Source of the DNA: Marchantia polymorpha subsp. ruderalis
Taxonomy: Eukaryota > Streptophyta > Marchantiopsida > Marchantiales > Marchantiaceae
Length of the DNA: 64,000 nucleotides
Direction of reading: 5' to 3'
Assembly: GCA_037833965.1 (NCBI GenBank)
Contig: AP031352.1
Coordinates: 1,840,501-1,904,500, forward strand
Notes under the pieces: generated by a model
Database searches by the model: none
Told to the model about the DNA's origin: nothing
The model's input: the letters and a program-made list of their open reading frames with translations, nothing else
Position numbers and translations under genes: made by a program
Part shown: one piece after another, positions 2,363-50,565 of the stretch
How positions within the stretch are numbered: the first letter of the stretch is position 1
How the letters are laid out: each line of letters begins with the position of its first letter

Positions 2363-2730
2363 CATGTGGTAACACGCTTTTTGTTTTTTTGCAGAATTTA
2401 AACAATTTTAGAAAACTAGTACCAAAGCAGTGTTTGTAGCTAGAGAAGGGTACGCTAAATAGAGTGGATTGATGAGATCGTCACGAGGGCACAAAGAATC
2501 ACGTAGTCGGATGTACCAACGCCAACGTCTTCGGCGCCTTCGGCAAAAACTCCTTTTTGAGGTGTCTCTACTCACGCGCCTCTAGCGTATGAGGAAGCTA
2601 CGCTTCCGGCGCAGACACCTCAGGAGGAGGTTTTGCTAAAGACGTCAGGAGAAGGGCCCGGACCTATAAAGGCATCCGACCATGAGTGCGCCTTCGGCGA
2701 AGCGCCGCTAGCGCGGAAAGGGAAAACCTT

Positions 2731-2849
2731 CATAACAATCGGGATACACGGTAGATCCAGTTGGTTGAAGTTGCATTAGGAAGAGCTCGGGACGCTCGTT
2801 CTAACGAGTCCAAGAGCGCCGGAGATGGATCAGGAATGGAGAAGTTATG
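2731..2849. repeat. Dyad module, copy in E1 LTR
   Basis: Runs from CATAAC to GTTATG, with the core AAGAGCTC...CTCGTT-TAACGAG between. The central stem is degraded compared with B copies. Confidence 0.7.
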
Positions 2850-3718
2850 AGCGTCGGAAAACTCGTAGCCGGACATGCGCCGTTCGCGCTAGGGTTCACA
2901 GCCGGAAAGGATTCCCGTACGCCCTCGGCGATGCGCCTTCGGCGGAATCACGCGCTCACAGGAGGAAACCAACTCAGAGTCGGAAGCGCCCTTGGCGGCT
3001 GTTCATGGAAGGAAAGCGCCGGTCGGAGGTACGCCTCCGACGTGGCGCTGACGGCCAGATGCGCTGGCATGAGTTGCGCTGACGGATATGCGCTGGCAGC
3101 AACGGACGAGGCATAAAGGACAAAATAGGCGGTACGACTGCGCGCCGGCGTAATTCGCTCCGGCTGGATGTGCGCCTCCAGCAAGGCGCCGACGGATAAT
3201 GAACGCACCAGCGGCGACACGCCTCCGGAGAAGGGCGGGTTAGGAAAAGACAACAGGGCCGACGTATACCCTGCAGCGGACTCGAGTCCGGAAGGTGGCG
3301 GCGGCGGGAGAATTCAACGTTTAAGCATGCGAATGCGCGCAATGCGGAGACGTGAATTCGCGCATGCAAAGGGCGAACCGTTAAGCCGTATAGCCGGCTG
3401 CGTACGTTGCAACCAGTAAGAACGTTGGACGTTCTTGAAATCGGAGAAGAAAAGACTGCGCTCCAGTCTCATTCTCTCATTCTTGACTTTGCAATTTCCA
3501 GTTCCAAGATTACGCGCAAGGGCGGAGCGACCTGCAGTGAGAGTAGAGAGTGCGGAGACGAGTTGCACAAGGATCTTGGCGGACCTTGAAAGAATTGGGA
3601 GTAGCGATCTTGAACGAGCGCAGAGAGAGTGAGCAGTCAGTGCTTGAGTGGCCGACGCGCAGTGGCGATTGTGAGAGAGTGAGCAAAAGGGAGAACGTTT
3701 GTGTGTGCAGGCAACGCA

Positions 3719-6274
3719 ATGTCGAAGGTTCCCCAACTGCGAGTGTCTCCACTCAGGGTGCCGCAGATCGGTCTACGCGCATTTCAAGATGTGCTGACGA
3801 GGCTGAAGCTCGATTTTCTCCTCTGGGGGTGGAATTGGACATGTCCGGAGATGGTGCGCGAGTATCTGCAAGAGAGACACAAGCCTTCTCGCGGATTTCG
3901 CCCACACCCAGAGAGATGGGAAATTTGCAATTGGGCGCAGGTGTTGGGCAGGTGTGCCGGCGAGGAAGGGGATCTCCTCTTCGAGGCCGACAGCGTGAAA
4001 GTGTCCCAGGAGGAAGAAGTCTCTTACAATGAGCTCTTCAAGGTGGCTAGACATCCCAAGAACGGTTTCCGGACTCGGGATTACAAGGATCGATTGCGGA
4101 GAAATGTCGCGACAGCATTGCTGCAGATATTGCAGCCGACCAAGACCGCTTACATGCATGGTTGGCAGGTAGAGTTCGTGGAGCTAGTGTTGTCAGGAGC
4201 TCCGGTGCATTGGGCACGGCTCCTGTGGAAGGTGACGCGCCAACATGCGCAAGAAGAGAGGGGAGGAACGCTCAATCATCTATCGCCTTACTTAATCGTG
4301 TTTTACCGGGCGATGGGATGTTTGACGAATGCTGAGAAAACTCGGTTTCCGCAGCTGAGTCGGTCTTATCCAGGTAGATATTCGAGGGAGGCCGAAGTAG
4401 ACACGGATCCGGACGAGGAACCTGCCAGTACGCCTCCGGCTCCGGCTCCAGCCAGAGCAGCAGAAGAACGTCGAAGTGAGCGTATTCCGCGCAAGCGGAA
4501 GTGGGATGAGAGACCTGAGGACAAGCAGCCGGAAGTACCAGCTGCGCCGACTCGTGGTCGGCCCACCCCCGAGCCTCATAGTCGACCAAAACAGAGGGCA
4601 CGCAGAATGCCAACTGTTACTGAGGAGACCAGGCGAACTCCGACCCGGCGGAATCTCACACAGGAAGAGATAATTGCTCAGGTCCTAGGGAAGACGGCAG
4701 AAACCTCTGCACAGAAGGCACCACGGCCTTCGGGAGGAGATGGAAGGACTGACAGCCGGCCGACTGCGAGTCGGATGACTGAAGGTCGACAAGCGGAAGG
4801 AAGGCCAAGTGAACGGCGCGTTGAACCGGACAGCAGGCCGGAAGCAGAAGAGAGTTTGGCTGACGAGCCAACAATCCTCAGAGGGTCGTCTTCGGCGGAA
4901 GGCACTTCTGGAAGAACGCCCCCAACAAGCAGGCCAAGTGGAGTCAAGACGCGCAGGGTGTATCCGACTCCCAGTCGGACAACTGCTGGTCGGCCGACTG
5001 CGAGTCGGACAACAGAGAGTCAGCCGGATTCGCCGACTGCGAGACGGATGGAGCCAACAACCAGTGTGCGGACGCCTTCGGCGGACGCACCTTCAGCAAG
5101 GACACCTTCCGCGCAGATTGCGCCGGAAGGACAGGCAGCAGAAGCGGGCGGTGCAAAAGTGACAAAAGTCACTGCGGCGTCGACCCCTTCACAAACCGAA
5201 GATCGAGCCGGAACAGGGGCTCAAGCAGTGGGATCTCCCACTGCCCTGGATATTTTAGCAGGCAGTGGAGCAGCAGTCGCAGCAGAAGCTGCTGCGCGCC
5301 ACAGTTCCAGGGAGTCGCCAAGGGATTCGGTGGCGACTGAGATCCTCGAGACTGAGGATGAGACGAGCTCGGAAGAGCAAGAAGAGGATTCGGTGCAGAA
5401 AACGCCAACAGGGGTGCTGTGCGAACAGATAGTTCCACTCCTGCGATATCTGGATCGCAAGACATCCAAATACGCAAGTGCCTTAAAACCGCAGTCTTAT
5501 GTGGAGACAATCAGGCGAAGGACGAGGAGCAAGGTGGCAAGGTGGGCCTCTAGATGCGGAGTATATGTGGATAGGAACACCGCCCTCCGACAACACCTGG
5601 CGGTCACCCAGAAGCTGTACCAAGCCTTGCAGCAGCAGAAGGAGGATGCGGCGACGAAGAGTCAGGCGGAGGCCGAACTAATACGGGCAAAGATCGAGTC
5701 GGAACTGCAGGAGGAGCGGAGACAGAACAAAGTCCTAGCAGCCGAGCTTGCGCGCCAGACGCGCGCCTTAGAGGAAAGTCAACGAGCCCGCAAGGAGGAT
5801 GAGGAGTTGTTGTGCAACTTGCAAACCGAGTGCTCGGATTTGAGGGCACAACGTGCGGATTTAGAAATGCAGCTGGCAGAGGTGGAGAGCAGCTGCAGGG
5901 CACGAAGAGAGTTGGCGGCACGGGTGACTCGTTGTCTAAACGGATACACCCATTGGGAGGTGGCAGCTCAAGAGAGGGTTACACTCCGGGAGTTCGAGCT
6001 TCGGGCGGCGGCATTGACGGAAGGTGACAGTCGGAGTCGGCGGCGAGTGGCGAGAAAATTAGAAACCTTCTTGTCGGGTGCGCGCGACACTATGGCGCAC
6101 TTGCAGTCGGAAGTCACTGCAGCGCTCCGACGCCTGGGGTTACGCAGCCGGTCGGAAGACTGGCAAGGTAGAGACAGTAAGCGGAGCAGTCCGGCGCGCA
6201 GGAGGCGCAGCACCGGATCTGCTGAGTGCAGTAGAGTAGTTTGGTTTCGCGCAGATGCTGCGAGTGGTAGATAG
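3719..6274 (+). CDS. LTR-encoded protein, subfamily A, 851 aa
   Basis: An intact ORF lies inside the LTR U3. ATG 3719 is chosen because homology with the other A copies begins there (MSKVPQLRV); the frame is open slightly further upstream but without another ATG. Residues ~1-230 form a conserved folded-looking domain with FLLWGWN, MVREYL, RTRDYKDRLRR and LNHLSPYLIVFYR. Residues ~240-560 are Pro/Ser/Thr/Arg-rich and low complexity. An acidic Glu-rich segment is followed by VPLLRYLDRKTSKYA, a long heptad-like coiled coil and a basic tail ending RRRRSTGSAECS. There is no zinc knuckle, protease, RT, signal peptide or clear membrane segment. It could be a distant relative of the accessory 'putative plant transposon protein' type found in Athila/Tat-like elements; that is a weak impression. 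Function unknown. Confidence 0.85.
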   Translation: MSKVPQLRVSPLRVPQIGLRAFQDVLTRLKLDFLLWGWNWTCPEMVREYLQERHKPSRGFRPHPERWEICNWAQVLGRCAGEEGDLLFEADSVKVSQEEEVSYNELFKVARHPKNGFRTRDYKDRLRRNVATALLQILQPTKTAYMHGWQVEFVELVLSGAPVHWARLLWKVTRQHAQEERGGTLNHLSPYLIVFYRAMGCLTNAEKTRFPQLSRSYPGRYSREAEVDTDPDEEPASTPPAPAPARAAEERRSERIPRKRKWDERPEDKQPEVPAAPTRGRPTPEPHSRPKQRARRMPTVTEETRRTPTRRNLTQEEIIAQVLGKTAETSAQKAPRPSGGDGRTDSRPTASRMTEGRQAEGRPSERRVEPDSRPEAEESLADEPTILRGSSSAEGTSGRTPPTSRPSGVKTRRVYPTPSRTTAGRPTASRTTESQPDSPTARRMEPTTSVRTPSADAPSARTPSAQIAPEGQAAEAGGAKVTKVTAASTPSQTEDRAGTGAQAVGSPTALDILAGSGAAVAAEAAARHSSRESPRDSVATEILETEDETSSEEQEEDSVQKTPTGVLCEQIVPLLRYLDRKTSKYASALKPQSYVETIRRRTRSKVARWASRCGVYVDRNTALRQHLAVTQKLYQALQQQKEDAATKSQAEAELIRAKIESELQEERRQNKVLAAELARQTRALEESQRARKEDEELLCNLQTECSDLRAQRADLEMQLAEVESSCRARRELAARVTRCLNGYTHWEVAAQERVTLREFELRAAALTEGDSRSRRRVARKLETFLSGARDTMAHLQSEVTAALRRLGLRSRSEDWQGRDSKRSSPARRRRSTGSAECSRVVWFRADAASGR

Positions 6275-6307
6275 GATAGCGTAGTGCTAGTTAGGATCTT
6301 TTGAGGG

Positions 6308-6336
6308 TATAAAGTAGATCAAGGCGTTTTGCCTTG
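6308..6336 (+). promoter_or_regulatory. E1 LTR TATA box and adjacent hairpin
   Basis: TATAAAG at 6308-6314 is followed by the hairpin CAAGGC-gtttt-GCCTTG at 6320-6336. It lies downstream of the LTR ORF and is conserved at the same place in every LTR here, so it most likely marks the U3/R boundary of the genomic transcript. Confidence 0.75.
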
Positions 6337-9030
6337 GGACTCTTCCAGTTTCGGAAGTGCAGATCAGGAACTCACTTTCTTGGCGTGTTTGTGCATTTTT
6401 GTCCTGGCACCACGTAGAGAAGCTGCAGCATAGCGAAGTTACCGTATGTTGTAGTTGAAGGCCTTCGGCTGAATGTTCAGAGCTAGCACCCGGTTAGAGA
6501 CTTGAGTAGTGCGGATCTGCACCTGCGGGTGATTTCTGATGCTCAGAGCCGGCTGCGAGTTAGATACTTGAACAGTTCCCCCTTACTCCTTCGAGTGACA
6601 TATCCTGATTGTACTCCTACGGGAAGTTTCCCCTGAATGCCAATGTGAAGTTTCATTACTTCGTGTAAACCTTGGTTTGTAATTCAGGTTGTGTGTGTGT
6701 TACTGGATCGTGTTTTCAGTAAGTTCTCAGTCGGGTCTGCACTCCCTGCGTTTTGTGTGATAGTCGAGGGTGACGTCCACGGCGTACGTAGAGGCTTCGT
6801 TCCGAAGTGAGAAGTCCAGTCCGGGTACCCCCGCTAGTTCCTGGCGGAAGGGCAGTAAAAGCCGGAGTGGGAGGCACTTCCTGCAGAACCTCTGAGTGAA
6901 CTTACGAGACACTTTCCTCCTGAAATCCGAAGCGGAGGTCCTGACCGACCTCCGAGTTGTGCTTTTTGCCAGTTTCAGGTGTGTGTGTGTGTGTGTTGAG
7001 TGACCAAGCTGTACCGTGCATCCTCCGAGCATCCTCCGAGTTGAGTTCCTCCTCCGAGTCGAGCCTCCGAGTCGAGCACTACAGTATTTCTGGGAGTGAC
7101 AGTCGCCTAGAATTCAAACTCTACCAAAAGTCTGTTAAACGTGACACTTTTACTCTGTGTGTTGCCTCTGTCCCTGTGGGTTCGATCTTTTTACCACCAT
7201 ACTGCAGTTTTAGCCTTTGGTGGGTTATTACAGTACACAACACCCTGCTATTTCCACATCGATCTCTGGTGGCCCTTGGTCTTCGCTGGCCACTTGGTAC
7301 ACCTGAGAGGATTTGGATGCGCGCGGCTTCCGCGGACGTCGTAACGAAAGCATCAACATCCTTCGATACGTCTTGTTGTCCTCAAGAAGCTGGTTGAACG
7401 TGATGTTCACCTGCCGACTCCCGAGATCTTCAACTAAGTCATAGTGGACGCGTTGGGTCGCAGGGGTCGGGGATGACGCCCTGCGAGGTTCCAAAGTTGC
7501 TGCCAACTTCACCCCAAAGGAGGGTGACAAGTCTGGCTGCGGTGGGTCCTTTTGGGTGCGGATCGCTTCCTTCAACAAGTTCGTTACCTCGTTGCTGATA
7601 TCCGGGGCATAGTCCCGTTTCAGCAAGCGTACTGGCTCATCCTCGACCACTGTCTGGGTGCGCACTGCTGGTGCTTCTCGCGTAACCGAAGACTTTCGTG
7701 GATGCCTTCTCCTTCCCTTTTCCCGTCCGGTCGTCGGCTCTCCGTTCGTGCTTGCGAGTGTCGCGCTCTTGTTCCTTCGATTTCTTGGAACTACGAGTTT
7801 CGACTCGTGCGCACATAACCTCTTCCGCCTGCCATTCTTCGTCTTCGTCATTTCTGTCCGAACCTACTTCGACTTGGTTAACTTGGACGTCCTCCTTGGC
7901 AAGAGTGGTCACAAATCGTACCGATGGCCGAGGAACTGGTGGCTGATCACACTCTGGCGCAGTATGCCCGGACTTCTTGCAGTTACTACATGTAGGGACA
8001 TAATCGTTTCTCCTTTTGGGATGGGGGCACTTAGGTGAAAAGTGTCCAACTTCCCCACAATTATAACAAGCTCGCGGCGGCGGTGGGTCAAACGTCCCTG
8101 GAGGTGCCCTTCGCCTCACGGGTACCGTAGTGGCCCGATCTACCGGATGATACCGTGGAACCTGCATTGCTGAAACTGCAGTAGGGGCGGGGACCGACTG
8201 GACGGCGTAGGCTGTCTCTTCGCTCGCCTCTCCATAGTACTGGGGGTGTTCTCCATAGTACGGTTGTGCCCACTCCACTGCGTTGACTGGATATGACGGA
8301 CGGGTGGTAAGACACTCGGTGTTCGCATGTCCCACCGCCCCGCACGTAGTGCACCACAAGTTCGCTCGCACTCTCCCGGGTGATTTTCGGCGATCATGGC
8401 CGCCTACCACTTGAACTTTGAGGTCGGCGAAGTCCTTCACAAGGGTCTCCATCTTCGAGGCTATGTCTCCCGGCGCTCTGTCCGTAGTCATTCGTCGGGG
8501 GCCCTTCTTCTTCGTTGCCCCATGCTTCTTTCTCTTCTTCTCTTCCTCCGACGAGGAGGTTTCCTCTTCTTCGGATGAGGAACGGTTCTCGTCCGAGGAC
8601 GGTTCTTCCGATGACGGAGTTGCACCTCTGCGTCGTCTTCGCCCTCCCTTCGGTTTCCGCTCCTTTGACTCCCGTCTCTCTCTCCCTCTTCGGTTGAGAG
8701 TGGAAGTTTCGAAGGCTTCGGCCGATGCAATCACATCCTCAATAGTATCGCACTTATTGTGTGGTACCCCACTTTTGGCAATTTTGAGGAAATTAAAACA
8801 TTTTTGGAAAACTGTACCCTGGCAGCATTGTAAATAGCCTTCGGTACATCAAAACAGAGTGAATCCGGAAGATCGCGGGGATTCTCGAGAGATCTTGTAG
8901 AATCTGGGATTTGGGGTGCAGCAGTAAGGACAGGCACCACCCTCCCTGCGAGCTCTGCAGTTAGGATCTCTACGGCGCAAGGCGCAGAACCCGCCTTCGG
9001 AGGTTGCGTCCGCGGCTGTAGGGAAACCCC

Positions 9031-9150
9031 CCGTAATTAGGTCAACCCTCGGGCGCCTTGACCAAGTTAGGGTCCCGTTGGAAAGAGCTCGACGCACTGA
9101 TTCCAACGAGCCCAAGAACGCTTGGAACGGATGAGGACTTAGGGAGTTAT
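9031..9150. repeat. Dyad module, copy in solo B LTR
   Basis: The central stem is CGTTGGAA (9076-9083) with TTCCAACG (9101-9108), around AGAGCTCGACGCACTGA. The module ends in GAGTTAT. Confidence 0.8.
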
Positions 9151-9239
9151 CGCTATTGGAAGAAACGGAGGCGGTCGCCTACGGCGGAAAGAGTTCGCCA
9201 CCGGCGCGAATTCCGCCTACGCGGAAGGGGGAATCAAGT

Positions 9240-9745
9240 TTTGTCCTATGCGCGGACGAAGGCGTTCGCCTGTGCACAGGCGAAGTAGGGTTAGGGGAGG
9301 CGCGAAGTCCGCCTACGCACAGGCGCTCGCCTGTGCACAGGCGCTTCGGCGTCGGCGGAAAATCCGCCTTGGGCCCTAGAAATGCGCCTTGTGAGGTAGA
9401 AGTGTACGGCGCCTTCCGCGCCAGCGCGGCGCCGCGTACGTCGGAAGAGCCGCCAGAGTAATCAAATCGGTACGGACCATGCGGACGGGAAGGGTGGATG
9501 CGCTCTTGGACGGACGGAGTTGCGGCGGCGGAAGCGCCGACGAAGAGACAAGGAACGGACAGACTGGACGGAGACGGCTGACCACGGTCAACGCCTTCCG
9601 CGCCAGCGCGACGTAGCGCACGGAATTCGCCTGCGCACAGGCGAACGCCTGTGCACAGGCGAACGCCTGTGCACAGGAGGATGAAGTTCCGTGCCGGCGG
9701 AGAATCCGCCGAGGCTCCTGCCTGCGCACAGGCGGGAGTTGAACT
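9240..9745. repeat. Cluster of 16-bp palindromes CGCCTGTGCACAGGCG
   Basis: Perfect and near-perfect copies occur at 9267-9282, around 9310-9345, 9628-9680 and 9718-9740. Variants such as CGCCTGCGCACAGGCG and CGCCTACGCACAGGCG change mostly the central bases. This is the non-coding 5' part of the B LTR. Equivalent clusters lie near 15330-15460, 15745-15840, 47660-47790, 48080-48175, 59660-59760 and 60040-60180. Confidence 0.85.
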
Positions 9746-10020
9746 TTTGTCCGACATGCGGACACACGCGTCAAGGCAGAGGGGGATTGGCCGAGGGGCG
9801 GTACGAACAAGTGTACCGCGCAAGGCGGAAAACTCGCCTTCTGCGTTACGCCCCCATGTCCGCAGGGTGACACGCTCGCGGAGTTCAAATCCGCCAATTC
9901 GAGCGTGAGAGTTTAATCGACGACGGCGGAGCGTGAAGCCGCGCTTGAGAGCGAAGACCGTTCCAGCGTACAGCCGGCGCGGCCATCAAGTGAGACGTTC
10001 TTCACGACCAAGAGCCGACC

Positions 10021-13000
10021 ATGACCTTCGACCGGGCGGCGGAGAACGTCCCATTCTTGAATTCGCGATTCCAATCTCTTGTGCGCGCTGCGCGCATCCA
10101 TCTGCTGGCTGCGGAACATTCTCGACGTCGTCGCACAGGAGATTTCTTGTTGATTGAGGGAGAAGTGAGTGCGCGTGATTTGGAATTGAGGGCGATTAGA
10201 GTTTGCCGAGAGAGAAAGAAGCGCGGGCAGTGCGGAAGTAGAATGAGCGGGCGAGCGAACCCCAGGAACGCAATGACGAGACCGAGCAGATTGCGGATGG
10301 TGCCACTTCGCCTACCGCAGAACGGGCTGCGCGCTTTTGAGGAGCGCTTAATAGCAAGAAAGCTCGATTTCTTGCTATGGGGATGGAATTACATCTGTGC
10401 GAATATGGTGCGCGAGTGGCTAGAGCCACAGGGACCACCCTCGCGCGGATTGCGTCCGCATGTTGACCGGTGGACAGTCCAAGATTGGGCACAGGCGTTG
10501 GGAAGATGTGCTCGCATGCCAGGGCATCTCCTTTTCGACAGTGAGAGCATCAAGGTGACCAAGCAAGAAGAGGCGCAATTTGTGGAGCTGTTCAAGACCG
10601 GGAGGTCTACCAAGAATGGGTACAGGACCCGTGATTACAAGGATCGATTTCGCCGGACTTTGTCCGCGGCGCTGATGCAATTACTGCAGCTGCACCGCGC
10701 CTGCTACATCACATTGTGGCAGGTCTCTTTTGTGGAGTGCGTCATCGAGGGAACTCCAATTCACTGGGCGAGCATCCTGCACAGGGTGATGCGACAGCAC
10801 GCGTTTGAGGAGAAGGGGGGAACTCTAAACCATCTTTCTCCTTTCCTCATCAATTTTTATCGACAGCGGAATTGTTTGACAGCGGCGGAGCTTGAACATT
10901 TTCCGCCATTGTCCATCGACCATCCCGGGAAGTATGTGCGGGAGAACGAGGTCGACACTGATGCAGAGGAGTCACCGACTTCTACCCCATCAAGACGGAG
11001 GGACGAAGGGAGACATACTCCTGCAGCACGAGTGCCGCGGAAGCGGCGATGGAGGGAAGAGTCTGAAGAGGAGCAGCATCAAGAACCCTCTGCTCCCATT
11101 CGACCGCGGCCGCTGTGCGAGCCATACAGCCGGCCGAAGCAGAAGGCACGCAGACTGGTGTTACCAGCTGACAGTGCGGACACGGCGACAATTGCGACGG
11201 AGATAGGAAGTGCGTCGCCAGAGAGGCATGAGGAAGCGCGGACGACCGCAGGAGCGACGGGCCACGCTGCAACCTCGACGGGAGAAAGGCCGCCTACGGG
11301 CCAAGAGCCTCCGGAGTTACCACGTGCGATGCGGACAGATGTTCCGTTTGCGCACGGACGAGCCTCCGCGGACGGACGAGCCTCCGCGGACCGGCGAACA
11401 CAAGTGGACGTGGATCTACGCTTACGCGTGGGAAGGAGCAGTCCGCCTGTGCACAGGCGCTCGCCTGTGCATAGGTCGCCTGTGCACAGGTCGCCTGTGC
11501 ACAGGACACCTCCACACGTGCCGCCTGTGCACAGGCAAGAATCACCCCCGTTCCAACGTAGGAAGGGGAAGGAGCCGGCGGAAGAACCGCCTACGAGACA
11601 CCGGCCCTCGGTGCCAGACCCTCCGGCGCACCACGCGCCGCAATTTGCGCCTTCGGCGCCAGGGCCTTCGAGCCGAGGAGATACGAGCAGAGAGCGTGCG
11701 GAGGCCGCACCATCGGCGGGAAGTCCGCCGATAGATGCGCCTTCGGCGGTAGGGCCTATAGGCCAAGGAACATCGGGCGTGCGGCCCCCGGCCATGTCGC
11801 CTTCGGCGATAGATGTCCGCGGCGCTACGCCTGCGGCGGACAAGGCGCCGGCAAATGCGCCTGCGCACGGGCCGGGCACAGCCCCCACGGACCGATCAAG
11901 GGAGCAGCAGACGGAGGAGCGGAGTGACTGTCCGCGGGATGAAATCTCGATGCGCGATGCGCAATCAAACCCCGCGCAGCCACCTTCCGCTCGATCGCCT
12001 TCAGCGGCGGACGACGGCGGCAGAGAGGATGCGGTAGACAATCAACAAGCGAGAGACGGGGATGCCGCACGGGTACATTCGCCTTCCGCCTTAGACCTTT
12101 TGGCGACGAGCAGCGAGGCTGCAGCCGTGCCTTCGCAGGCAGCACACGTCGACGACGTGCAGCCCCACTCGGGGCAGTCGCCGACGCAATCAATGGCGAC
12201 TGAAATTCTCCACTCGGATGATGACGACGGAGGCTCCACGGAAGAAATGTCAGGAGCAAAAGACACCGAGGAGGAGGAGGAGGAAATTGTTGGAGCGCCG
12301 GCGGCGGCGCTCTCTGAGCAGGTGATTCCGTTGCTGCGGTACTTGGATCGCAAGGTCGATAAATACGCCGACCCACTCCAGCCGGGATCTTACATCGAGT
12401 TAGTGCGCAGGCGGACTCGCACTAAAGTCCACACCAGCAAGCTATTAGCTAGAGTGGACCAGGAGTTGAGGGACTTGAAGGAGAAGCATGAGTGCTTGTG
12501 GGGACAGTACAAGCTTAATCAGAAATTCTACAAGCACTCCGAGAAGATGAAGGATGAGAAACTGGGCGAGCTCACCAAAGAGCAGGTGAAGGTCAAGGAA
12601 GCACTCAACTCTGAGCAGGCCCAGAATCGGATTTTGTCAGAGGAGCTCGTGCGACAGACGCGGTTGTTGGAACAATGTCAGCTCGCACGGCAGGCGGATG
12701 AAGAGTTAATCCGCAGGTTACAGTCAGAGTGTGGCGAATTGAGAGCGCAACGTGCTGAAGCCGAATCGCAATTAGTGATAATTGAAGAGGATCGCAGGAA
12801 GGAGGCGGATCGCACGAAGGTGGAGACGGCGAGGCGAGTCGCCCACTGTCTCAAGGGCTACGCCCACTGGGAAGTGAAGGCGCAGGAGAAACTCACACTG
12901 CGTGAGTTTGAATTGCGCGCAGCCGGGTTGTTGTCAGGCGACAGTAGGAGTCGGCGGAAGGTAGCGAAGAAGCTCGATGCCTTTCTGTCGAAGGCACAGG

Positions 13001-13173
13001 ATACCATGTCCGCCCTCGAAGGGGAGGTGTCCGCGGCGTTGCAGAGGTTGGGACTGCGCAGTCGAGCGGAAGATTGGCAGGGTAGGGAGTTAGTGCGCGG
13101 CAGTCGGCCGCGCAGGAGACGTAGTACAGGTTCCGCGGAGTGTAGTGTAGCGTGGTTCCGTGCAGGCGTGTAG
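10021..13173 (+). CDS. LTR-encoded protein, subfamily B, 1050 aa, intact
   Basis: ATG at 10021 starts MTFDRAAEN, and the same ATG context opens the B copies at 16121, 48458 and (antisense) 59383. After about 90 residues comes the domain shared with subfamily A: PLRLPQNGLRAF, KLDFLLWGWNYIC, RTRDYKDRFRR, GTPIHWASILHRVMRQHAFEE and LNHLSPFLINFYR. A Pro/Ser/Ala/Arg-rich repeat region follows (many PSA and PVHR units, made from palindromic DNA repeats). Next are an acidic block (SDDDDGGSTEE, EEEEEEIVGAP), VIPLLRYLDRKVDKYADPLQPGSY, a coiled coil of about 200 residues and a basic Arg/Ser tail. No enzymatic motif or membrane segment is visible. It lies upstream of the LTR TATA box, so it needs either its own promoter in 8760-10020 or expression from the 3' end of genomic RNA. 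Confidence 0.88.
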   Translation: MTFDRAAENVPFLNSRFQSLVRAARIHLLAAEHSRRRRTGDFLLIEGEVSARDLELRAIRVCRERKKRGQCGSRMSGRANPRNAMTRPSRLRMVPLRLPQNGLRAFEERLIARKLDFLLWGWNYICANMVREWLEPQGPPSRGLRPHVDRWTVQDWAQALGRCARMPGHLLFDSESIKVTKQEEAQFVELFKTGRSTKNGYRTRDYKDRFRRTLSAALMQLLQLHRACYITLWQVSFVECVIEGTPIHWASILHRVMRQHAFEEKGGTLNHLSPFLINFYRQRNCLTAAELEHFPPLSIDHPGKYVRENEVDTDAEESPTSTPSRRRDEGRHTPAARVPRKRRWREESEEEQHQEPSAPIRPRPLCEPYSRPKQKARRLVLPADSADTATIATEIGSASPERHEEARTTAGATGHAATSTGERPPTGQEPPELPRAMRTDVPFAHGRASADGRASADRRTQVDVDLRLRVGRSSPPVHRRSPVHRSPVHRSPVHRTPPHVPPVHRQESPPFQRRKGKEPAEEPPTRHRPSVPDPPAHHAPQFAPSAPGPSSRGDTSRERAEAAPSAGSPPIDAPSAVGPIGQGTSGVRPPAMSPSAIDVRGATPAADKAPANAPAHGPGTAPTDRSREQQTEERSDCPRDEISMRDAQSNPAQPPSARSPSAADDGGREDAVDNQQARDGDAARVHSPSALDLLATSSEAAAVPSQAAHVDDVQPHSGQSPTQSMATEILHSDDDDGGSTEEMSGAKDTEEEEEEIVGAPAAALSEQVIPLLRYLDRKVDKYADPLQPGSYIELVRRRTRTKVHTSKLLARVDQELRDLKEKHECLWGQYKLNQKFYKHSEKMKDEKLGELTKEQVKVKEALNSEQAQNRILSEELVRQTRLLEQCQLARQADEELIRRLQSECGELRAQRAEAESQLVIIEEDRRKEADRTKVETARRVAHCLKGYAHWEVKAQEKLTLREFELRAAGLLSGDSRSRRKVAKKLDAFLSKAQDTMSALEGEVSAALQRLGLRSRAEDWQGRELVRGSRPRRRRSTGSAECSVAWFRAGV
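11441..11536. repeat. In-frame array of the 16-bp palindrome inside the LTR ORF
   Basis: Five to six copies of CGCCTGTGCACAGG(CG) are spaced 12-18 bases apart and encode SPVHR units. They are the same palindrome found in the non-coding LTR part. Other copies of the ORF have different numbers of units (compare 17540-17590, 49858-49925 and 57885-57960). Confidence 0.85.
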
Positions 13174-13209
13174 CGTAGTGCAGTGTAGTGCTAGGTAGGA
13201 CTTAGAAGG

Positions 13210-13238
13210 TATAAAATAGTTCCAGGCGTTTTGCCTGG
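13210..13238 (+). promoter_or_regulatory. Solo B LTR TATA box and hairpin
   Basis: TATAAAA 13210-13216, then the hairpin CCAGGC-gtttt-GCCTGG 13222-13238. Compared with CAAGGC/GCCTTG in subfamily A, one base pair has changed on both sides, so pairing is kept. Confidence 0.75.
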
Positions 13239-14775
13239 GGTTCTTTCCCATCAGAAGTGCAGATCAGGAACCCATTTCCTTTGCGTGTTTGTGTCCTTGA
13301 GTTCTGTCACCACGCACGAGGAGTTACAACTTAGCGTTCCGCATTTTGTAGCTGAAGGCCTTCGGCCGAATGTTCAGAGCTAGTACATTGGTTAGAGACT
13401 TGAGTAGTTCGGATCTGTACCTGCGGGTGACTGCCGATGCTCAGAGCCAGTGACTAGTTAGATACTTGAACAGTTTCGCCCCTACACCTTCGAGTGTTTC
13501 TTTCTGATTGTACTCCTTGGGATTTTTCCCCTGAATGCCAAAGTGAAGTTTTGCTACTTCGTGTAAGCCTTGGTTGTAAATTCAGGTTACGCTGCAGCAG
13601 GTGCCTTGAGGGTAACCCCTGTAGTATTTCTGGGAATGACAAGTGCCTGAGAATTCAAACTCTTCAATAGACTGTTGTTGTGTTACTGGAATGTTTCTCA
13701 GTGAGTCCTTCAGTGCGGACTTGTGTTCTCTGCGCGTTTTGTGAGTTGAGAGTGTTGTTCACCGCGTCTGAGTGACTTCGATCCGAAGTAGGTAGTCCAA
13801 ACCGGGTTTCCTACACTAGTAGCAAGCTAGTGGAAGCGTTGTAAAAGCCGGAGTTGGAAGTCACTGCCCGCAGCTTTGCCGAGTGTGCTCGTGAGAGACT
13901 TTCCCCCTGAAATCTTGAAGTAGAGGTCCTAACGGATCTCTGGGTTGTGTTTCTGTAGTTTCAGGTGTGTGTGTGTGTGTGTTACGCTGCACTGTGCGAC
14001 CTCCGAGTGCGCTCCGAGTGGACACTTGCAGTATTTCTGGGAGTGACAGTCGCCTGAGAATTCAAACTCCTCAATAGTCTGTTAAAACGTGACACTTTGT
14101 ACCCTGTGTGTTCCTCTGTCCCTGTGGGTTCGACCTTTCTACCACTATATTGCAGTTTTAGCCTTTAGTGGGTTATTACATATTGCGTCGGCAAAAAGTC
14201 TCCATCTCCCGAGTTAAGCCGGTCACGTACCAATCCATAGCTTGCTGTACCGAGAAAGGGGACCCTGGTCCTGTTTTCGGTATTCTGTCAAGGAGGTCCA
14301 GAAATCTCTCGGTGTAGTCCCGCAGACTCTCCTTCTTCTCCCGCTGCAGGTTACGCAACTTTGTCAATACCCGACTGTCGTAGCCGAGCTCGCGGAAGCG
14401 TCGAAGGAACTTCTCCTTCAGCTGAGCCCATGTTGTCAACCCAGTCGGATCGATGCTCTCGTGATTGTACCAACTTCTTGCCTTCTTCCGCAGAAGACTT
14501 GGAAAGATCCGTAGTCGGTCCTCGTCTTGGATCTCGCGATTAGCAATGGACACCGATTCGAACAACTTGATGTAGGAATCTGCATCGTCGTCATCCCCAC
14601 TCCCTTTATACTTTGGGTAGGAGTGTTTAGTAATCGGCTGAGGTAGCCGCACATTGGCTTGTCCGTCCGCCATCGGTGTGTCTGTTGACGGTTCTCGGGC
14701 GGTCGGTTCTAAATCACGAGGGAGCTCCGTGCAAGGAATATCTAGTAGAACTGTAAGCACCAGGTTTGGTTCCGA

Positions 14776-14916: not shown

Positions 14917-15184
14917 TGTGGTACCCCACTTTTGGTAATTTTGAGGAAATTAAAACATTTTTGGAAAACTGTACCCTGTCAGCAATGTAAATAGCCTTCG
15001 GTGCATCAAAACAGAGTGAATTCGGAAGATCGCAGAGATTCTCGAGGGACCTCGTAGAATCTAGGAGTTGGGTGCAGCGGTAAGGACGGGCATCACCCTC
15101 CCTGCGAACTCTGCAGCTAGGATCCCTACGGCGCAAGGCGCAGAACCCGCCTTCGGAGCTGCATTTGCGGCGGTAGGGAAATCC

Positions 15185-15305
15185 TTCATATTTAGGTCAA
15201 CCCCGGACGCCTTGACTTAGTTAGGATCTCGTTGGAAAGAGCTCAACGCATTGATTCCAACGAGCCCAAGAACGCCAACAACGGATGAGGACTCCGGGAG
15301 TTATG
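15185..15305. repeat. Dyad module, copy in E3 LTR
   Basis: Perfect 10-bp stem CTCGTTGGAA (15228-15237) with TTCCAACGAG (15255-15264), enclosing AGAGCTCAACGCATTGA. Confidence 0.85.
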
Positions 15306-16120
15306 AAGGTTGTAAGATACTCAGCTTTCCGCCTACGCACAGGCGAAGAAGTTTTGTCCTATGCGCGGACGAAGGAAGTTCGCCTGCGCACAGGCGAGAT
15401 AGGGTTTTTGAGGTAGGCGCGAAGTTCGCCTACGCACAGGCGTCCGCCTGTGCACAGGCGCTTCGGCGTCGGCGGGAAATCCGCCTTGGGCCCTAGAAAT
15501 GCGCCTTGTGAGGTAGAAATTGTACGGCGCCTTTTGCGCCAGCGCAGCGCCGCGGACGAGCAAGGAGCCGCCAGAATAGTAAAATCCGTATGGACCGTAC
15601 GGACGGGACGGATTGATGCGCTCTTGGACGGACGGAGTTGCGGCGGCGGAAGCGCCGACGAAGAGACAAGGAACGGACAGTCTGGACGGAGTCGGTTGAC
15701 CGCGGTCAACGCCTTCCGCGCTAGCGCATCGCCGCGGACGGACCTCGCCTGCGCACAGGCGAGCGCCTATGCACAGGAGGGTGAAGTTCCGCGCCGGCGG
15801 AGAATCCGCCGAGGAGTCCGCCTACGCGCAGGCGAGAGTTGAACTTTTGTCCGACATGCGGACACACGCGCCGAGGCAGAAGAGGATTGGGTGAGGAGCG
15901 GTACGAATGAGTGTACCGCGCAAGGCGGAAAATCCGCCTTCGGCGCTGCGCCCCCAGGTCCGCGGCGTAGTACGCTCGCGGAGTTCAAATTCGCCAATTC
16001 GAGCGTGAGAGTTTAATCGGCGACGGCGGAGCGTGAAGCCGCGCGTGAGAGCGGAGACCGTTTCAGCATAGAGCCGGCGCGGCCATCAATTGAGACGTAC
16101 TCCACGAGCAAGAGCCGACC

Positions 16121-19100
16121 ATGACCTTCGACCGGGCGGCGGAGAGCGTCCCATTCTTGAATTCGCGATTCCATTCTCTAGTGCGAGCTGCGCGCGTCCA
16201 TCTGCTGGCTGCTAAGCATTCTCGACATCGCCGCGCAGAGGATTTCTTGGTGATTGAGGGAGAAGTGAGTGCGCGTGATTTGGAATTGAGGGCGATTAGA
16301 GTTTGCCGAGGAAGAAAGGAGCTCGAGCGGAGCGGAAGTAGAATGAGCGGGCGGGCGAACTCCAAGAACGCAATGACGAGACCGGGCCGATTGCGGATGC
16401 TACCGCTCCGTCTACCACAGAACGGGCTGCGCGCTTACGAGGAGCGCCTGATAGCAAGGAAGCTCGATTTCTTGCTATGGGGATGGAACTACATCTGTGC
16501 GGATATGGTGCGCGAGTGGCTAGAGCCACAGGGACCACCCTCGCGTGGATTGCGTCCGCATGTTGATCGGTGGACAGTCCAAGATTGAGCGCAGGCATTG
16601 GGGAGATGTGCCGGCATGCCAGGGCACCTCCTCTTCGACAGTGAGAGCATCAAGGTGACCAAGCAGGAAGAGGCGCAATTTGTGGAGTTGTTCAAGAACG
16701 GGAGGTCTACCAAGAATGGGTACAGGACCCGCGATTACAAGGATCGATTCCGCCGGACTTTGTCTGCGGCGCTGATGCAATTACTGCAGCCACACCGCGC
16801 CTGCTACATCACATTGTGGAAGGTCTCTTTTGTGGAGTGTGTCATCGAGGGAACTCCAATTCACTGGGCGAGCATCCTGCACAGGGTGATGCGACAGCAC
16901 GCTTTTGAGGAGAAGGGGGGAACTCTAAACCATCTCTCTCCTTTCCTCATCAATTTTTATCGACAGCGGAATTGTTTGACAGCGGCGGAGCTTGCGCGTT
17001 TTCCGCCGTTGTCCGTCGACCATCCCGGGAAGTATGTGCGGGAGAATGAGGTCGACACTGATGCAGAGGAGTCACCGACTTCTACTCCGTCAAGGCGGAG
17101 GGACGAAGGGAGGAACACTCCTGCAGCACGAGCGCCGCGGAAGCGGCGATGGAGAGAGGAGTCCGAAGAGGAGCAGCATCAAGAACCCTCTGCTCCCATT
17201 CGACCGCGGCCGTTGTACGAGTCATACAGCCGGCCGAAGCAGAAGGCACGCAGGCTAGTGTTACCAGCCAACAGCGCGGACACGGCGACGATTGCGACGG
17301 AGAAAGGAAGTGCGTCGCCAGAGAGGAACGAGGGAGCGCGGACGTCCGCAGGAGCAACGGACCGCACTGCACCCTCGACGGACGAGAGGCCGCCTACGGG
17401 CGGAGGGCCTCCGGAGTTACCACGTGCGTTGCGGACAGGTGTTCCGTTTGCGCACAGGCGAGCCTCCGCGGACGGACGAGACTCCGCGGACGGACGACCA
17501 CAAGCGGACGTAGACCTACGCCTACGCGTGAGAAGAAGCAGTCCGCCTGTGCGCAGGTCACCTCCACACGTGCCGCCTGTGCACAGGCAGGAATCACCCC
17601 CATTCCAACGTAGGAAGGGGAAGGAGCCGGCGGAGGATCCGCCTACGAGACACCGGCCTTCGGGGCCAGACCCTCCGGCGCACAACGCGCCGCGATTTGC
17701 GCCTTCGGCGCCAGGGCCTTCGAGCCAAGGAGATACGAGCAGGGAGCGTGCGGAGGCCGCACCATCGGCGGGTAATCCGCCGGTAGATGCGCCTTCGGCG
17801 GTAGGGCCTCAGGGCCAAGGGACATCGGGCGAGCGGCCCCCGGCCATGTCGCCTTTGGCGGTGGACGTCCGCGGCGCTACGCCTGCGGCGGACAAGGCGC
17901 CGGCATTTGCGCCTGCGCACAGGCCAAGCACAGCCCCCGCGGACTGATCGAGGGAGCAGCAACAGACGGAGGAGCGGAGTGACTGTCCGCGGGATGAAAT
18001 TTCGGTGCGCGATGCGCAATCAAACCCCGCGCAGCCACCCTCCGCTCGATCGCCTTCGGCGGCGGACGTCGGCGGCAGAGAGGATACGGTAGAAGACCAA
18101 CACGCGGGCGGCGGGGATGTAGCACGGGCACATTCGCCTACCGCCTTAGACATTTTGGCGAAGAGCAGCGAGGCTGCAGCAGTGCCTTCGCAGGCAGCAC
18201 ACGTCGACGACGTGCAGCCCCACTCGGGTCAGTCGCCAACGCAATCAATGGCGACTGAAATTCTCCACTCGGATGATGACGACGGAGGCTCCACCGAAGA
18301 AATGTCAGGAGCAGAGGATACCGAGGAGGAGGAGGAGGAAATTGTTGGAGCGCCGGCGGCGGCGCTCTCTGAGCAGGTGATTCCGTTGCTGAGGTACTTG
18401 GATCGCAAAATCGATAAATACGCCGACCCACTTCAGCCGGGATCTTACATCAAATTAGTGCGCAGGCGGACTCGCACTAAAGTCCACACCAGCAAGCTAC
18501 TAGCTAGAGTGGACCAGGAGTTGAGGGAATTGAAGGAGAAGCATGAATGCTTGTGAGGTCAGTATAAACTCAATCAGAAATTCTACAAGTACTCCGAAAA
18601 GGTGAGGGATGGGAAACTGGAAGAGCTCACCAAGGAGCAGGTGAAGGTCACGGAAGCACTAATTTCTGAGTAGACCCAGAATCGGATTTTGTCAGAGGAG
18701 CTCGTGCGACAGACGCGGTTGTTAGAGCAGTGACAAGCGGATGAGGATCTAATCCGCAGGCTAGAGTCAGAGTGTGGCGAATTGAGATCGCAGCATGCTG
18801 AGGCCGAATCGCAATTAGTGGTAATTGAAGAGGATCGCACGCCAGAGGCAGATCGCACGAAGGAGGAGACGGCAAGGCGTGTCGCCCACTATCTCAAGGG
18901 CTACGCCCACTGGGAAGTGGCGGCGCAGGAGAAACTCACACTACGTGAGTTTGAACTTCGCGCAGCCGGGTTGTTGACAGTCGACAGCAGGAGTCGGCGG
19001 AAGGTAGCGAAGAAGCTCGATGCTTTTCTGTCGAAGGCGCGGGACACCATGTCCACCCTCGAAGTGGAGGTGTCCGCGGCGTTGCAGCGATTGGGACTGC

Positions 19101-19216
19101 GCAGTCGAGCGGAAGACTGGCAGGGTAGGGAGTTAGTGCGCGGCAGTCCGTCGCGCAGGAGACGTAGCACAGGTTCCGCAGAGTGTAGTGTAGCGTGGTT
19201 CCGTGCAGGCGTGTAG
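16121..19216 (+). pseudogene. LTR-encoded protein, subfamily B, broken by in-frame stops
   Basis: Colinear with the intact ORF at 10021-13173 and in one frame throughout, but with stops at 16586 (TGG to TGA), 17945 (CGA to TGA), 18554 (TGG to TGA), 18671 (CAG to TAG) and 18731 (beside a 12-base deletion). Four of the five are C-to-T or G-to-A transitions, the pattern expected from methylated cytosine decay. The N-terminal domain, acidic block and coiled coil are all recognisable. Confidence 0.9.
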
Positions 19217-19252
19217 CGTAGTGCACTGTAGTGCTAGTTAGGACTTAGAAGG

Positions 19253-19281
19253 TATAAAATAGTTCCAAGCGTTTTGCCTGG
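19253..19281 (+). promoter_or_regulatory. E3 5' LTR TATA box and hairpin
   Basis: TATAAAA at 19253-19259 with the downstream hairpin region CCAAGC-gtttt-GCCTGG. One pair is weakened here, unlike the solo B LTR. It would drive E3 genomic RNA. Confidence 0.7.
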
Positions 19282-20253
19282 GGTTCTTTCCCAAACTCAG
19301 AAGTTCAGATCAGGAACCCATTTCCTCTGCGTGTTTGTGTCCTTGAGTTCTGTCACCACGCACGAGGAGTTACAACTTAGCGTTCCGCATTTTGTAGCTG
19401 AAGGCCTTCGGCCGAATGTTCAGAGCTAGTACATTGGTTTGAGACTTGAGTAGTTCGGAATTGCACCTGCGGGTGACTGCCGATGCTCAGAGCCAGTGAC
19501 TAGTTAGATACTTGAACAGTTTCGCCCCTACACCTTCGAGTGTTTCTTTCTAATTGTACTCCTTTGGGATTTTTCCCCTGAATGCCAAAGTGAAGTATTG
19601 CTACTTCGTGTAAGCCTTGGTTGTAAATTCAGGTTACGCTGCAGCAGGTGCCTTTGGGGTAACCCCTGTAGTATTTCTGGGAATGACAAGTGCCTGAGAA
19701 TTCAAACTCTTCAATAGACTGTTGTTGTGTTACTGGAATGTTTCTCAGTGAGTCCTTCAGTGCGGACCTGTGTTCTCTGTGCGTTTTGTGAGTTGAGAGT
19801 GTTGTTCACCGCGTACGAGTGACTTCGATCCGAAGTAGGCAGTCCAAACCGGGTTTCCTACACTAGCAGCAAGCTAGTGGAAGTGTTGTAAAAGCCGGAG
19901 TTGGGAGTCACTGCCCGCAGCTTTGCCGAGTGTACCCTCGCGAGAGACTTTCCCCCTGAAATCTTGAGTAGAGGTCCTAACGGATCTCTGGGTTGTGTTT
20001 CTGTAGTTTCAGGTGTGTGTGTGTGTGTGTGTGTTACGCTGCACTGTGCGACCTCCGAGTGCGCTCCGAGTGGACACTTGCAGTATTTCTGGGAGTGACA
20101 GTCGCCTGAGAATTCAAACTCCTCAATAGTCTGTTAAACGTGACACTTTGTACCCTGTGTGTTCCTCTGTCCCTGTGGGTTCGACCTTTCTACCACTATA
20201 TTGCAGTTTTAGCCTTTAGTGGGTTATTACATAAGAAGCCGACAACTTCTTTT

Positions 20254-26822: not shown

Positions 26823-27024
26823 AGTGTTACGCTGCACTGTGCGACCTCCGAGTGCGCTCCGAGTGGACACTTGCAGTATTTCTGGGAGTGACAGTCGCCT
26901 GAGAATTCAAACTCCTCAATAGTCTGTTAAACGTGACACTTTGTACCCTGTGTGTTCCTCTGTCCCTGTGGGTTCGACCTTTCTACCACTATATTGCAGT
27001 TTTAGCCTTTAGTGGGTTATTACA
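26823..27024 (+). mobile_element. E3 3' LTR remnant (202 bp)
   Basis: Starts at GTGTTACGCTGCACTG, just after the GT microsatellite of the intact LTR, and runs to GGGTTATTACA. It is followed by the CGGAG duplication, so it is the true right end of E3. Confidence 0.9.
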
Positions 27025-28736: not shown

Positions 28737-28971
28737 TGTGAGCACAAAATTGTGCTCACATGTCTTTTTAACCTTGTGAGAGTTAAAGTTTTAGATTTAA
28801 GCTCTTGCAAAATTATGCTCGGAGTTTTCTGGAAGTTTTGGTAAGATTAGGAGTTGGTGTAATAGCTAGTAGGCAAAGGTCCGGAACGGGGCTTTCAGGG
28901 CAGGGTCTCCGGCGAAGAGCCTTCGGTGAAGTTCCTTCGGGGAAAGGCCTTCGGCGAAACAGTGAAACCCT

Positions 28972-30673: not shown

Positions 30674-30686
30674 CCTGATCTTGTAA

Positions 30687-50534: not shown

Positions 50535-50565
<31 letters not shown>

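What the first reader, a model, noticed from the sequence alone, without database searches (positions are those of the whole stretch)
8760..14180. Retrotransposon LTRs of ~5 kb that each contain a full-length gene in U3
Seen: this LTR is bounded by TG...CA and a TATTG duplication and contains a 1050-codon ORF (10021-13173) upstream of its TATA box. The same arrangement holds for six other giant LTRs here. Known: mouse mammary tumour virus encodes a protein in its LTR, but plant LTRs normally carry no gene; large LTRs of non-autonomous plant elements are usually described as non-coding. Inferred: since transcription starts after the ORF, genomic RNA carries this gene once, as the 3'-terminal cistron, and reverse transcription then duplicates it into both LTRs.
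Basis: partly seen in the sequence, partly recalled or inferred. Interest (0 to 1): 0.92.

Follow-up and report, generated by a model that had tools for sequence, protein, structure and literature searches.

The report
Retrotransposon repeats carrying their own gene
In a liverwort, a family of jumping elements carries a large, selectively maintained protein gene inside its end repeats, a part that in plants is normally considered non-coding, so each new insertion ends up with two copies of that gene.

Summary
The LTR at 8760-14180 is real: TG..CA ends, a TATTG duplication, and an unfilled relative of its insertion site. It holds a 1,050-codon ORF (10021-13173) ending 36 bases before a TATA box. 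The window has eight such giant LTRs in two subfamilies, each with this ORF intact or as a relic. The genome is very probably Marchantia polymorpha. Two elements with two LTRs each were read there; all four LTRs hold the ORF, and one element has a matching 5-bp duplication. Between the LTRs lie gag-protease and RT-RNaseH-integrase. Spacing suggests dozens more. The ORF behaves as a gene: pN/pS is 0.26 in frame against 0.60-1.01 in the adjacent U3, and 18 of 19 indels are multiples of three. The protein evolves much faster than pol, has basic clusters and no membrane segment, reaches no Pfam cut-off, and its named relatives found are all Marchantia. If the TATA box is used, the genomic RNA carries the gene once, near its 3' end, and reverse transcription copies it into both LTRs. 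Expression and function remain inference; I favour a nuclear accessory protein acting on the element's own expression. My searches found no described plant counterpart; MMTV sag is the closest analogue.

The parts
8760..14180 (+). LTR A1 (5,421 bp), TGTGGTAC...TTATTACA, inserted in an antisense Ty3/gypsy gag
8755..8759 (.). left target-site duplication TATTG
14181..14185 (.). right target-site duplication TATTG
8760..10020 (+). U3 leader upstream of the ORF, GC 0.60, 8 ATGs, no TATAWA (TGTAAATAG near its start, where subfamily D has TATAAATAG), inverted repeats CGCC-n-GGCG
10021..13173 (+). U3 ORF, 1,050 codons plus stop; pN/pS below 0.5 in all four segments tested
10273..11010 (+). N-terminal conserved domain (residues 85-330), pN/pS 0.10; five NCBI gene models of Marchantia (P0006-P0009, P0015) align from residue 85 with their first residue
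12256..13170 (+). C-terminal Glu/Arg/Gln-rich, coiled-coil-like domain and basic tail (residues 746-1050), pN/pS 0.21
   Evidence: 'coiled-coil-like' is my reading of the sequence
13210..13219 (+). TATA box of the presumed LTR promoter
13222..13238 (+). hairpin CCAGGC-GTTTT-GCCTGG just after TATA; CAAGGC...GCCTTG in C1 and C2 (one compensatory change), mismatch in older copies A2 and C4
13239..14180 (+). R-U5 (U3/R boundary inferred, not mapped), alignable between A and C
14917..20231 (+). LTR A2 (a 5' LTR: followed by TAAGA, the start of the internal region); ORF relic 16121-19213, 5 stops
27022..46466 (-). LTR A4, split by LTR C2 and a 10-kb element; ORF pieces 45897-44836, 39975-38776, 28734-27865
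47245..62848 (+). LTR A3/6 (preceded by the polypurine-tract end, so a 3' LTR), split by A5; ORF pieces 48458-50176 and 60586-61836
50341..60587 (-). LTR A5 nested in A3/6 and split by C3; ORF pieces 59383-56558 and 51692-51366, no stop in either
2365..7232 (+). LTR C1 (4,868 bp), 3' LTR of an element reaching past the left edge of the window; ORF 3719-6274, 851 codons, no stop
3..2327 (+). end of pol (RT, RNase H, integrase) of the element whose 3' LTR is C1
39978..44853 (+). LTR C2, TSD AGAGG on both sides; ORF 41338-43893, 851 codons, no stop
51689..56563 (-). LTR C3, TSD GTCTC on both sides; ORF relic 55204-52652, 2 stops

Best explanation
SHOWN BY SEQUENCE: A group of Ty3/gypsy retrotransposons (subfamilies A and C, and D seen in one LTR), very probably of Marchantia polymorpha, has LTRs of about 4.9-5.4 kb whose U3 holds a protein gene of 851-1,050 codons ending 32-36 bases (66 in D) before a TATA box. 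The two A elements read have it in both LTRs, beside gag-protease and RT-RNaseH-integrase domains, and it has been held by purifying selection. INFERRED FROM RETROTRANSPOSON BIOLOGY: RNA starts at the TATA box after the ORF in the 5' LTR and ends in R of the 3' LTR, so the genomic RNA carries the gene once, near its 3' end; reverse transcription copies U3 into both new LTRs. INFERRED, WEAKER: the protein is made from a separate mRNA (spliced, or from a second U3 promoter) that ends at the poly(A) site of the same LTR. SPECULATIVE (about 0.35): the protein is a nuclear accessory factor that acts on the element's own LTRs or on host silencing.
For: Two-LTR elements: C3:2473808-2490395 has CCTGT on both sides and ORFs of 1,054 and 1,059 codons (stop to stop); its LTRs differ at 10 of 5,388 sites. 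C4:14483002-14499533 has ORFs of 1,044 and 1,049; its LTRs differ at 6 of 5,359 sites. Of 14 LTR copies read, 11 are open over 1,043-1,059 codons. Of 114 scored genome matches to the A ORF start, 90 are open over >=1,000 codons; 16 same-strand neighbours lie 11.05-11.21 kb apart and in 14 of the 16 both frames are >=1,000. Subfamily C: 90 of 150 open >=880; 22 neighbours 10.62-10.67 kb apart, 17 with both >=880. Selection: variable sites by codon position 113/119/226; ORF indels 18 multiples of three to 1, outside 31 to 40; pN/pS 0.26 in frame (11 copies against A1), 1.40 and 1.39 in the other sense frames, 0.60-1.01 in the U3 leader; by segment 0.24, 0.10, 0.41, 0.21. A against C: 47% protein identity, dN/dS about 0.22 with dS saturated. 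Same order in D. Basic clusters PRKR(K/R)W and RPKQ(K/R)AR(K/R) in A, C and P0001; highest 19-residue hydropathy mean 1.14 in A and 1.21 in C.
Against: No transcript or peptide was available, so the start site, splicing and translation are unproven. Genome matches were ranked by similarity to the query, so the share of intact ORFs is biased to young copies. The D LTR has a second TATA-like box, TATAAATAG, 71 bases into the LTR, upstream of the ORF; the same place reads TGTAAATAG in 14 of 15 A copies and TGTATATAG in one. Three of 15 A copies also have a TATAWA inside the ORF region, and C1 has one in its leader. The antisense frame that shares third positions has pN/pS 0.30; I take it as a mirror of the sense frame because the longest antisense frame there is 320 codons. 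The fold prediction failed (mean pLDDT 43.9), so the function has no structural support.
Confidence: 0.81

Rival explanations
1. The ORF is a chance open frame in GC-rich repeat DNA.
For: The region is GC 0.60, and long antisense frames occur.
Against: Simulated maximum 406 codons; in-frame pN/pS 0.26; 18 of 19 ORF indels are multiples of three; the ORF aligns with C at 47% identity over 908 residues, while the A and C leaders share no match of 150 bases or more (A and D do share the first 430 bases at 71%).
Confidence: 0.01
2. Transcription starts upstream of the ORF, so the ORF lies in R/U5 and the genomic RNA carries it at both ends as a leader gene.
For: No start site is mapped. Subfamily D has TATAAATAG 71 bases into the LTR; a further TATAWA exists in 4 of 15 A copies and in the C1 leader. 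Because of the D site I raised this from 0.06 to 0.08.
Against: A TATA box directly follows the ORF in 15 of 15 A copies, C1, C2 and D, with a hairpin and an alignable R-U5 after it in A and C; in A1 and C2 it is the only TATAWA of the LTR. The D-like upstream box is TGTAAATAG in 14 of 15 A copies and not kept in C1-C3.
Confidence: 0.08
3. The gene has its own promoter in the U3 leader and the poly(A) site in R of the same LTR, so every LTR, solo ones included, is a stand-alone gene; its place at the RNA's 3' end is incidental.
For: Leaders of 1.23-1.36 kb with 8-20 ATGs before the ORF argue against scanning from upstream; D has a TATA-like box near the LTR start. A review reports that maize Grande gene23 is transcribed from a promoter of its own (PMC7264820, text read), and MMTV sag has several promoters, one inside U3 (PMC4667437, passage).
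Against: No TATAWA in the A1, A2 or C2 leader; no transcript data. A spliced mRNA explains the leader equally well.
Confidence: 0.45
4. The protein is an envelope-like or movement protein, as proposed for other 3' sense ORFs of plant elements.
For: It is a sense ORF downstream of pol, the usual place of env-like ORFs (PMC7264820).
Against: No strongly hydrophobic 19-residue stretch in A or C, conserved basic clusters; no Pfam match above a curated cut-off.
Confidence: 0.07
5. A host gene was recently captured by the element (transduction).
For: The ORF is large and outside gag-pol.
Against: Shared by subfamilies A, C and D, with 47% protein identity between A and C. All named homologues found are Marchantia hypothetical proteins; the one located in the genome, P0001, lies in an LTR of subfamily D. 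The others were not located.
Confidence: 0.05

Closest known systems
Mouse mammary tumour virus and related betaretroviruses: sag in the U3 of the LTR (PMC4667437, passages read)
   Same: Accessory protein encoded mostly in U3, so the provirus has it in both LTRs; the paper states that LTRs are ordinarily non-coding.
   Different: No homology tested directly; no Pfam match here. Vertebrate retrovirus; this ORF is 851-1,050 codons and lies wholly inside the LTR, ending before the TATA box.
Plant LTR retrotransposons with additional ORFs: Athila, SIRE, Retrosat2/RIRE3/RIRE8, Grande, RIRE2, Retand (PMC7264820, two of three parts read; PMC6317226, section 13 and passages; PMC3485330, passages)
   Same: Accessory ORF that evolves faster than pol, often with long LTRs; Grande gene23 is reported nuclear.
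   Different: Those ORFs are described as lying in the internal region; here it is inside the LTR. The Pfam families named for them (PF10536, PF04195, PF03078) were not matched here.
Large LTR elements of plants: non-chromoviruses with LTRs up to about 5 kb (PMC6317226, section 13 read); LARDs (recalled)
   Same: LTR size; no chromodomain found; PBS for a tRNA other than tRNA-Met.
   Different: LARDs are described as non-coding and non-autonomous (recalled); these elements encode gag and pol and the LTR is coding.
VANC anti-silencing proteins of Arabidopsis VANDAL transposons (PMC10398659, abstract read)
   Same: Proposed functional parallel only: fast-evolving protein plus fast-changing short repeats in the element's own regulatory DNA.
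   Different: DNA transposons (recalled), no homology shown; no binding or demethylation data here.

Membership tests
Ty3/gypsy LTR retrotransposon | gag, then protease, RT, RNase H, integrase in that order | tested here: met
   A element L009/L010: Retrotrans_gag, Ty3_capsid, zinc knuckles, aspartyl protease; RVT_1; RT_RNaseH, Integrase_H2C2, rve. C1 element, pol end: RVT_1, RNase H, integrase
Ty3/gypsy LTR retrotransposon | two LTRs with TG..CA ends and a 5-bp target duplication | tested here: met
   C3:2473808-2490395, CCTGT on both sides; single LTRs A1 TATTG, C2 AGAGG, C3 GTCTC
Ty3/gypsy LTR retrotransposon | primer site for a host tRNA and a polypurine tract beside the LTRs | tested here: met
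   TGGCGCCGCTGCCGGGGA matches the 3' end of tRNA-Asp(GTC) in 4 of 4 genes found by pattern, plus the CCA added to tRNAs, but 22-23 bases away from the LTR; PPT GAGGAGGGG(A/G)GCA
Chromovirus | chromodomain at the end of pol | tested here: not met
   no chromodomain match at E<=0.01 in two pol ends
Tat clade | additional RNase H domain (aRH) | tested here: not met
   no second RNase H family at E<=0.01 in gag-protease, the start of pol or the two pol ends
Athila / OTA superclade | position in the RT-RH-INT tree | not tested
   no reference set at hand; tRNA-Asp primer and lack of chromodomain fit a non-chromovirus (PMC6317226)
Athila ORF-1, plant mobile domain, Transposase_28 accessory ORFs | match to PF03078, PF10536 or PF04195 | tested here: not met
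   not among matches up to E 10 in 22 proteins (HMMER's filters drop most weak matches) or up to E 1 in the full ORFs; remote homology by fold not testable
Plant internal-region additional ORF (aORF/eORF) | ORF between LTR and gag or between pol and 3' LTR | tested here: not met
   pol ends 37 bases before the 3' LTR in both elements read; the ORF starts 1,261 bases inside the LTR
LARD | no coding capacity of its own (recalled) | tested here: not met
MMTV-like LTR-encoded accessory gene (way of working) | ORF in U3, present in both LTRs | tested here: met
   both LTRs; U3 placement by TATA box only:
MMTV-like LTR-encoded accessory gene (way of working) | separate mRNA for the LTR gene | not testable with these tools
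   no RNA data

The most novel reading that the evidence does not exclude
Each LTR is a complete gene unit: a promoter in the U3 leader, the ORF, and the poly(A) site in R. Loss of the body by LTR-LTR recombination, normally the end of an element, would then leave a working helper gene. Its protein would be a sequence-specific nuclear anti-silencing or activating factor that recognises the fast-changing inverted repeats (CGCC-n-GGCG; in A also CCTGTGCACAGG) enriched in U3 and not seen in the R-U5 and pol stretches examined, so solo LTRs would keep sibling elements active.
Probability: 0.18. Interest if true: 0.93.

Novelty: new variant of a known kind. Interest (0 to 1): 0.8.

Why it matters
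LTRs are generally treated as regulatory, non-coding DNA; a review of additional ORFs in plant elements places them in the internal region (PMC7264820). A conserved gene of up to 1,050 codons in U3 of a plant element that also encodes gag and pol shows that an MMTV-type arrangement exists outside vertebrate retroviruses, explains at least one group of giant LTRs, and means that solo LTRs may still be coding. It also makes testable why an element would place a gene where reverse transcription doubles it. The probable host is a model plant, so expression can be checked.

Tried and rejected
Pfam: no match of the ORFs above a curated cut-off; weak matches in low-complexity or coiled-coil stretches, such as Extensin_1 (best E 1.9e-4, 1 of 22 proteins) and CENP-K (best 0.0018, 2 of 22), were not followed. 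PDB sequences (A1 ORF only) and Rfam: nothing. AlphaFold2 on the N-terminal domain with 22 sequences: mean pLDDT 43.9, not used for fold searches. A closely spaced LTR pair (C3:30601851/30608229) looked like a spliced-RNA copy; the 2 kb read (L029) show nested LTR insertions, no splice-like junction. CCTGTGCACAGG as a universal binding site: 8 in A1 (2-8 in 15 A copies), 0 in C2 and in the D copy, so at best subfamily-specific. Enrichment tests used first-order simulations only. A genome search with P0007 did not complete. Homology searches reached only Marchantia; each time only the 8,000 candidates sharing most words were scored, so absence elsewhere is not shown.
Full report
What was checked. 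The LTR at 8760-14180 has TG..CA ends and the duplication TATTG. It interrupts, in antisense, a gypsy gag stretch whose 96%-identical relative is continuous at 20484-21328 of the same window. The ORF 10021-13173 is present as described. Simulated LTRs of the same first-order composition never gave a stop-free run above 406 codons in 300 trials. Window self-comparison and protein comparison show eight giant LTRs: A1, A2, A3/6, A4, A5 and C1, C2, C3 (about 4.9 kb), several nested in one another; all eight hold the ORF or its relic.

Where it is from. The window lies in an unnamed 241,466,482-base genome with 9 sequences. MarpolBase gives 241,484,302 bases in 9 sequences for M. polymorpha Tak-2 v7.1 (PMC13078153, passages). 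One NCBI protein of M. polymorpha, P0001, matches one place at 98% (residues 81-710) and 94% (1-90). So the host is very probably M. polymorpha; this is inference.

Full-length elements. The two read do. Twenty 10-kb stretches around 20 of the 40 best-scored LTR ends were fetched. Fourteen LTR copies were read; six stretches (L013, L014, L015, L018, L023, L028) were left out because the LTR is deleted, in pieces or cut there. Of the 14, 11 are open over 1,043-1,059 codons stop to stop; the other three (L022, L024, L021) have longest frames of 886, 740 and 633 codons. Two pairs are two-LTR elements: C3:2473808-2490395, flanked by CCTGT on both sides, and C4:14483002-14499533, whose first LTR is itself preceded by a polypurine-tract end, so it seems to sit in a tandem. 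Their LTR pairs differ at 10 of 5,388 and 6 of 5,359 sites. Internal regions are about 5.8 kb: gag-protease, a UAG stop, then RT-RNaseH-integrase in the same frame. In L009 and L010 both frames are open; in L011 gag-protease is broken by a stop. The remaining two-LTR copies are inferred from spacing: 16 neighbouring pairs 11.05-11.21 kb apart among 114 scored matches for A (14 with both frames >=1,000 codons) and 22 pairs 10.62-10.67 kb apart among 150 for C (17 with both >=880). In separate searches of LTR ends there were 8 such spacings among 40 of 43 matches for A and 12 among 40 of 41 for C; the short leftover matches were dropped. Runs of three or four count as two or three pairs. All these searches rank by similarity to the query, so young copies are over-represented.

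Coding evidence. In 15 aligned LTR copies (A1, A2 and 13 of the 14; L021 left out for a large deletion) the variable sites in the ORF fall 113/119/226 on codon positions 1/2/3, and indels in the ORF are multiples of three in 18 of 19 cases against 31 of 71 outside (counted per copy against A1, so shared indels count repeatedly). With 11 copies against A1 (A2, L022 and L024 also left out) pN/pS is 0.26 in frame, 1.40 and 1.39 in the two other sense frames, 1.58, 0.30 and 1.45 in antisense, and 0.60-1.01 in six frames of the U3 leader. By segment: residues 1-84 0.24, 85-330 0.10, 331-745 0.41, 746-1050 0.21. Single dN/dS comparisons of 11 open copies with A1 range from 0.20 to 0.31, except 0.80 for the nearly identical L016. 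Among window copies pN/pS is 0.31, 0.31 and 0.43 (A1, A2, A5) and 0.26, 0.26 and 0.35 (C1, C2, C3). A against C: 426 of 908 residues identical, dN/dS about 0.22 with dS saturated. Over the same A-C split, 640 codons of pol keep 89% identity, pN 0.064 against 0.38 for the U3 ORF: a fast-evolving accessory protein under constraint.

Promoter and U3. A TATA box lies 36 (A1), 33 (C1), 32 (C2) and 66 (D) bases after the ORF. After it comes a short hairpin in which one pair changes on both sides between A and C, though older copies A2 and C4 carry mismatches, then an alignable R-U5. A third subfamily, D, read at C2:26892600-26900599, repeats the order LTR start, leader, ORF (two in-frame TAG, at 2226 and 2586), TATA, hairpin, R-U5 until an inverted A LTR cuts it. 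Against my reading, D also has TATAAATAG 71 bases into the LTR; A has TGTAAATAG there in 14 of 15 copies, C1-C3 have neither. The U3/R boundary is inferred.

The protein. It has a conserved N-terminal part, a Pro/Ser/Ala-rich middle, and a charged C-terminal part that looks like a coiled coil. It carries two conserved basic clusters and no strongly hydrophobic stretch. It reaches no Pfam cut-off and matches no PDB sequence. Relatives: 2, 19 and 3 proteins in three overlapping searches; every named one is a hypothetical protein of M. polymorpha, one (P0020) is unnamed.

How it likely works. With the promoter after the ORF, the genomic RNA would run R-U5-gag-pol-U3(ORF)-R; reverse transcription then puts the ORF into both LTRs. 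Because 8 to 20 ATGs stand between the LTR start and the ORF in the four copies counted, the protein should come from a spliced or separately initiated mRNA. Its function is unknown from data. Basic clusters, speed of evolution and inverted repeats in U3 make a nuclear factor acting on its own LTRs my first guess, at about 0.35. The repeats CGCC-n-GGCG number 8, 6 and 6 in the A1, C2 and D leaders against 1.2, 0.5 and 0.5 in simulations (maxima 7, 3, 3); 7 and 6 in the A1 and D ORFs against 1.8 and 0.9 (maxima 8, 5); 1 in the C2 ORF against 0.8; 1 in gag against 0.6; 1 in an unrelated 1.9-kb LTR against 0.15; none in three R-U5 and two pol stretches.

Novelty. Ten library searches were made, nine of which bear on this (open-access papers only). 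In their listings, and in the passages read, I saw no plant LTR that encodes a conserved protein. I cannot exclude a description in a subscription paper or a database entry. MMTV sag is the closest in layout. I file it as a new variant of LTR retrotransposon, not a new kind.

A TATA-like box in D moved the rival of an upstream start from 0.06 to 0.08 and the main confidence from 0.82 to 0.81.

Noticed in passing
L009:9080-9088, L011:9113-9121: gag-protease and pol are separated by UAG CAA UUA (L009) or UAG CAG UUA (L011), the CARYYA context of tobacco mosaic virus readthrough (motif recalled); the context is kept despite a silent change, suggesting programmed stop readthrough.
   Followed up: partly
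L009:6162-6183, L011:6197-6219: The exact tRNA-Asp primer site starts 22-23 bases after the LTR end instead of next to it; the spacer can form the hairpin AAGAAG-CCGACAA-CTTCTT. At C1:388460, beside a C LTR end at C1:388500, the distance is about 22. How the U5 end is trimmed is unexplained.
   Followed up: partly
G000 C4:14586174-14619744, C3:20847444-20880720, C4:20818876-20852474 and others: Runs of three or four LTRs at constant spacing (11,190; 11,092; 11,198-11,200 bases), known from coordinates only: probably tandem LTR-internal-LTR arrays, perhaps by unequal recombination.
   Followed up: partly
window 28737-38808: A 10-kb gypsy element with 1.9-kb LTRs 97.9% alike and a single 2,039-codon open frame with gag, protease, RT, RNase H and integrase matches, inserted in LTR A4; TSD CGGCG; its PBS-like site lies 5 bases after the LTR.
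   Followed up: partly
L040 (C2:26892600-26900599): Old subfamily D LTR in AT-rich DNA matching the annotated protein P0001 at 98% over residues 81-710 with no stop in that match; two in-frame TAG lie further upstream in the frame. The next 23 matches by score each carry one or more stops.
   Followed up: partly
LTR position about 71 in subfamilies A and D: TATAAATAG in D, TGTAAATAG in 14 of 15 A copies: perhaps an old or weak second promoter of the U3 gene.
   Followed up: partly
window 22696-26823: Remnant of another element of this group: the 3' part of an LTR, then gag-protease and RT-RNaseH frames, cut off by an A LTR end at 26824-27024 whose neighbour is in the opposite orientation.
   Followed up: no
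G000, whole genome: The 17-base tRNA-Asp primer complement (either of two variants) occurs 1,240 times (597 + 643), backward control 0, hinting at over a thousand internal regions with this primer site.
   Followed up: no
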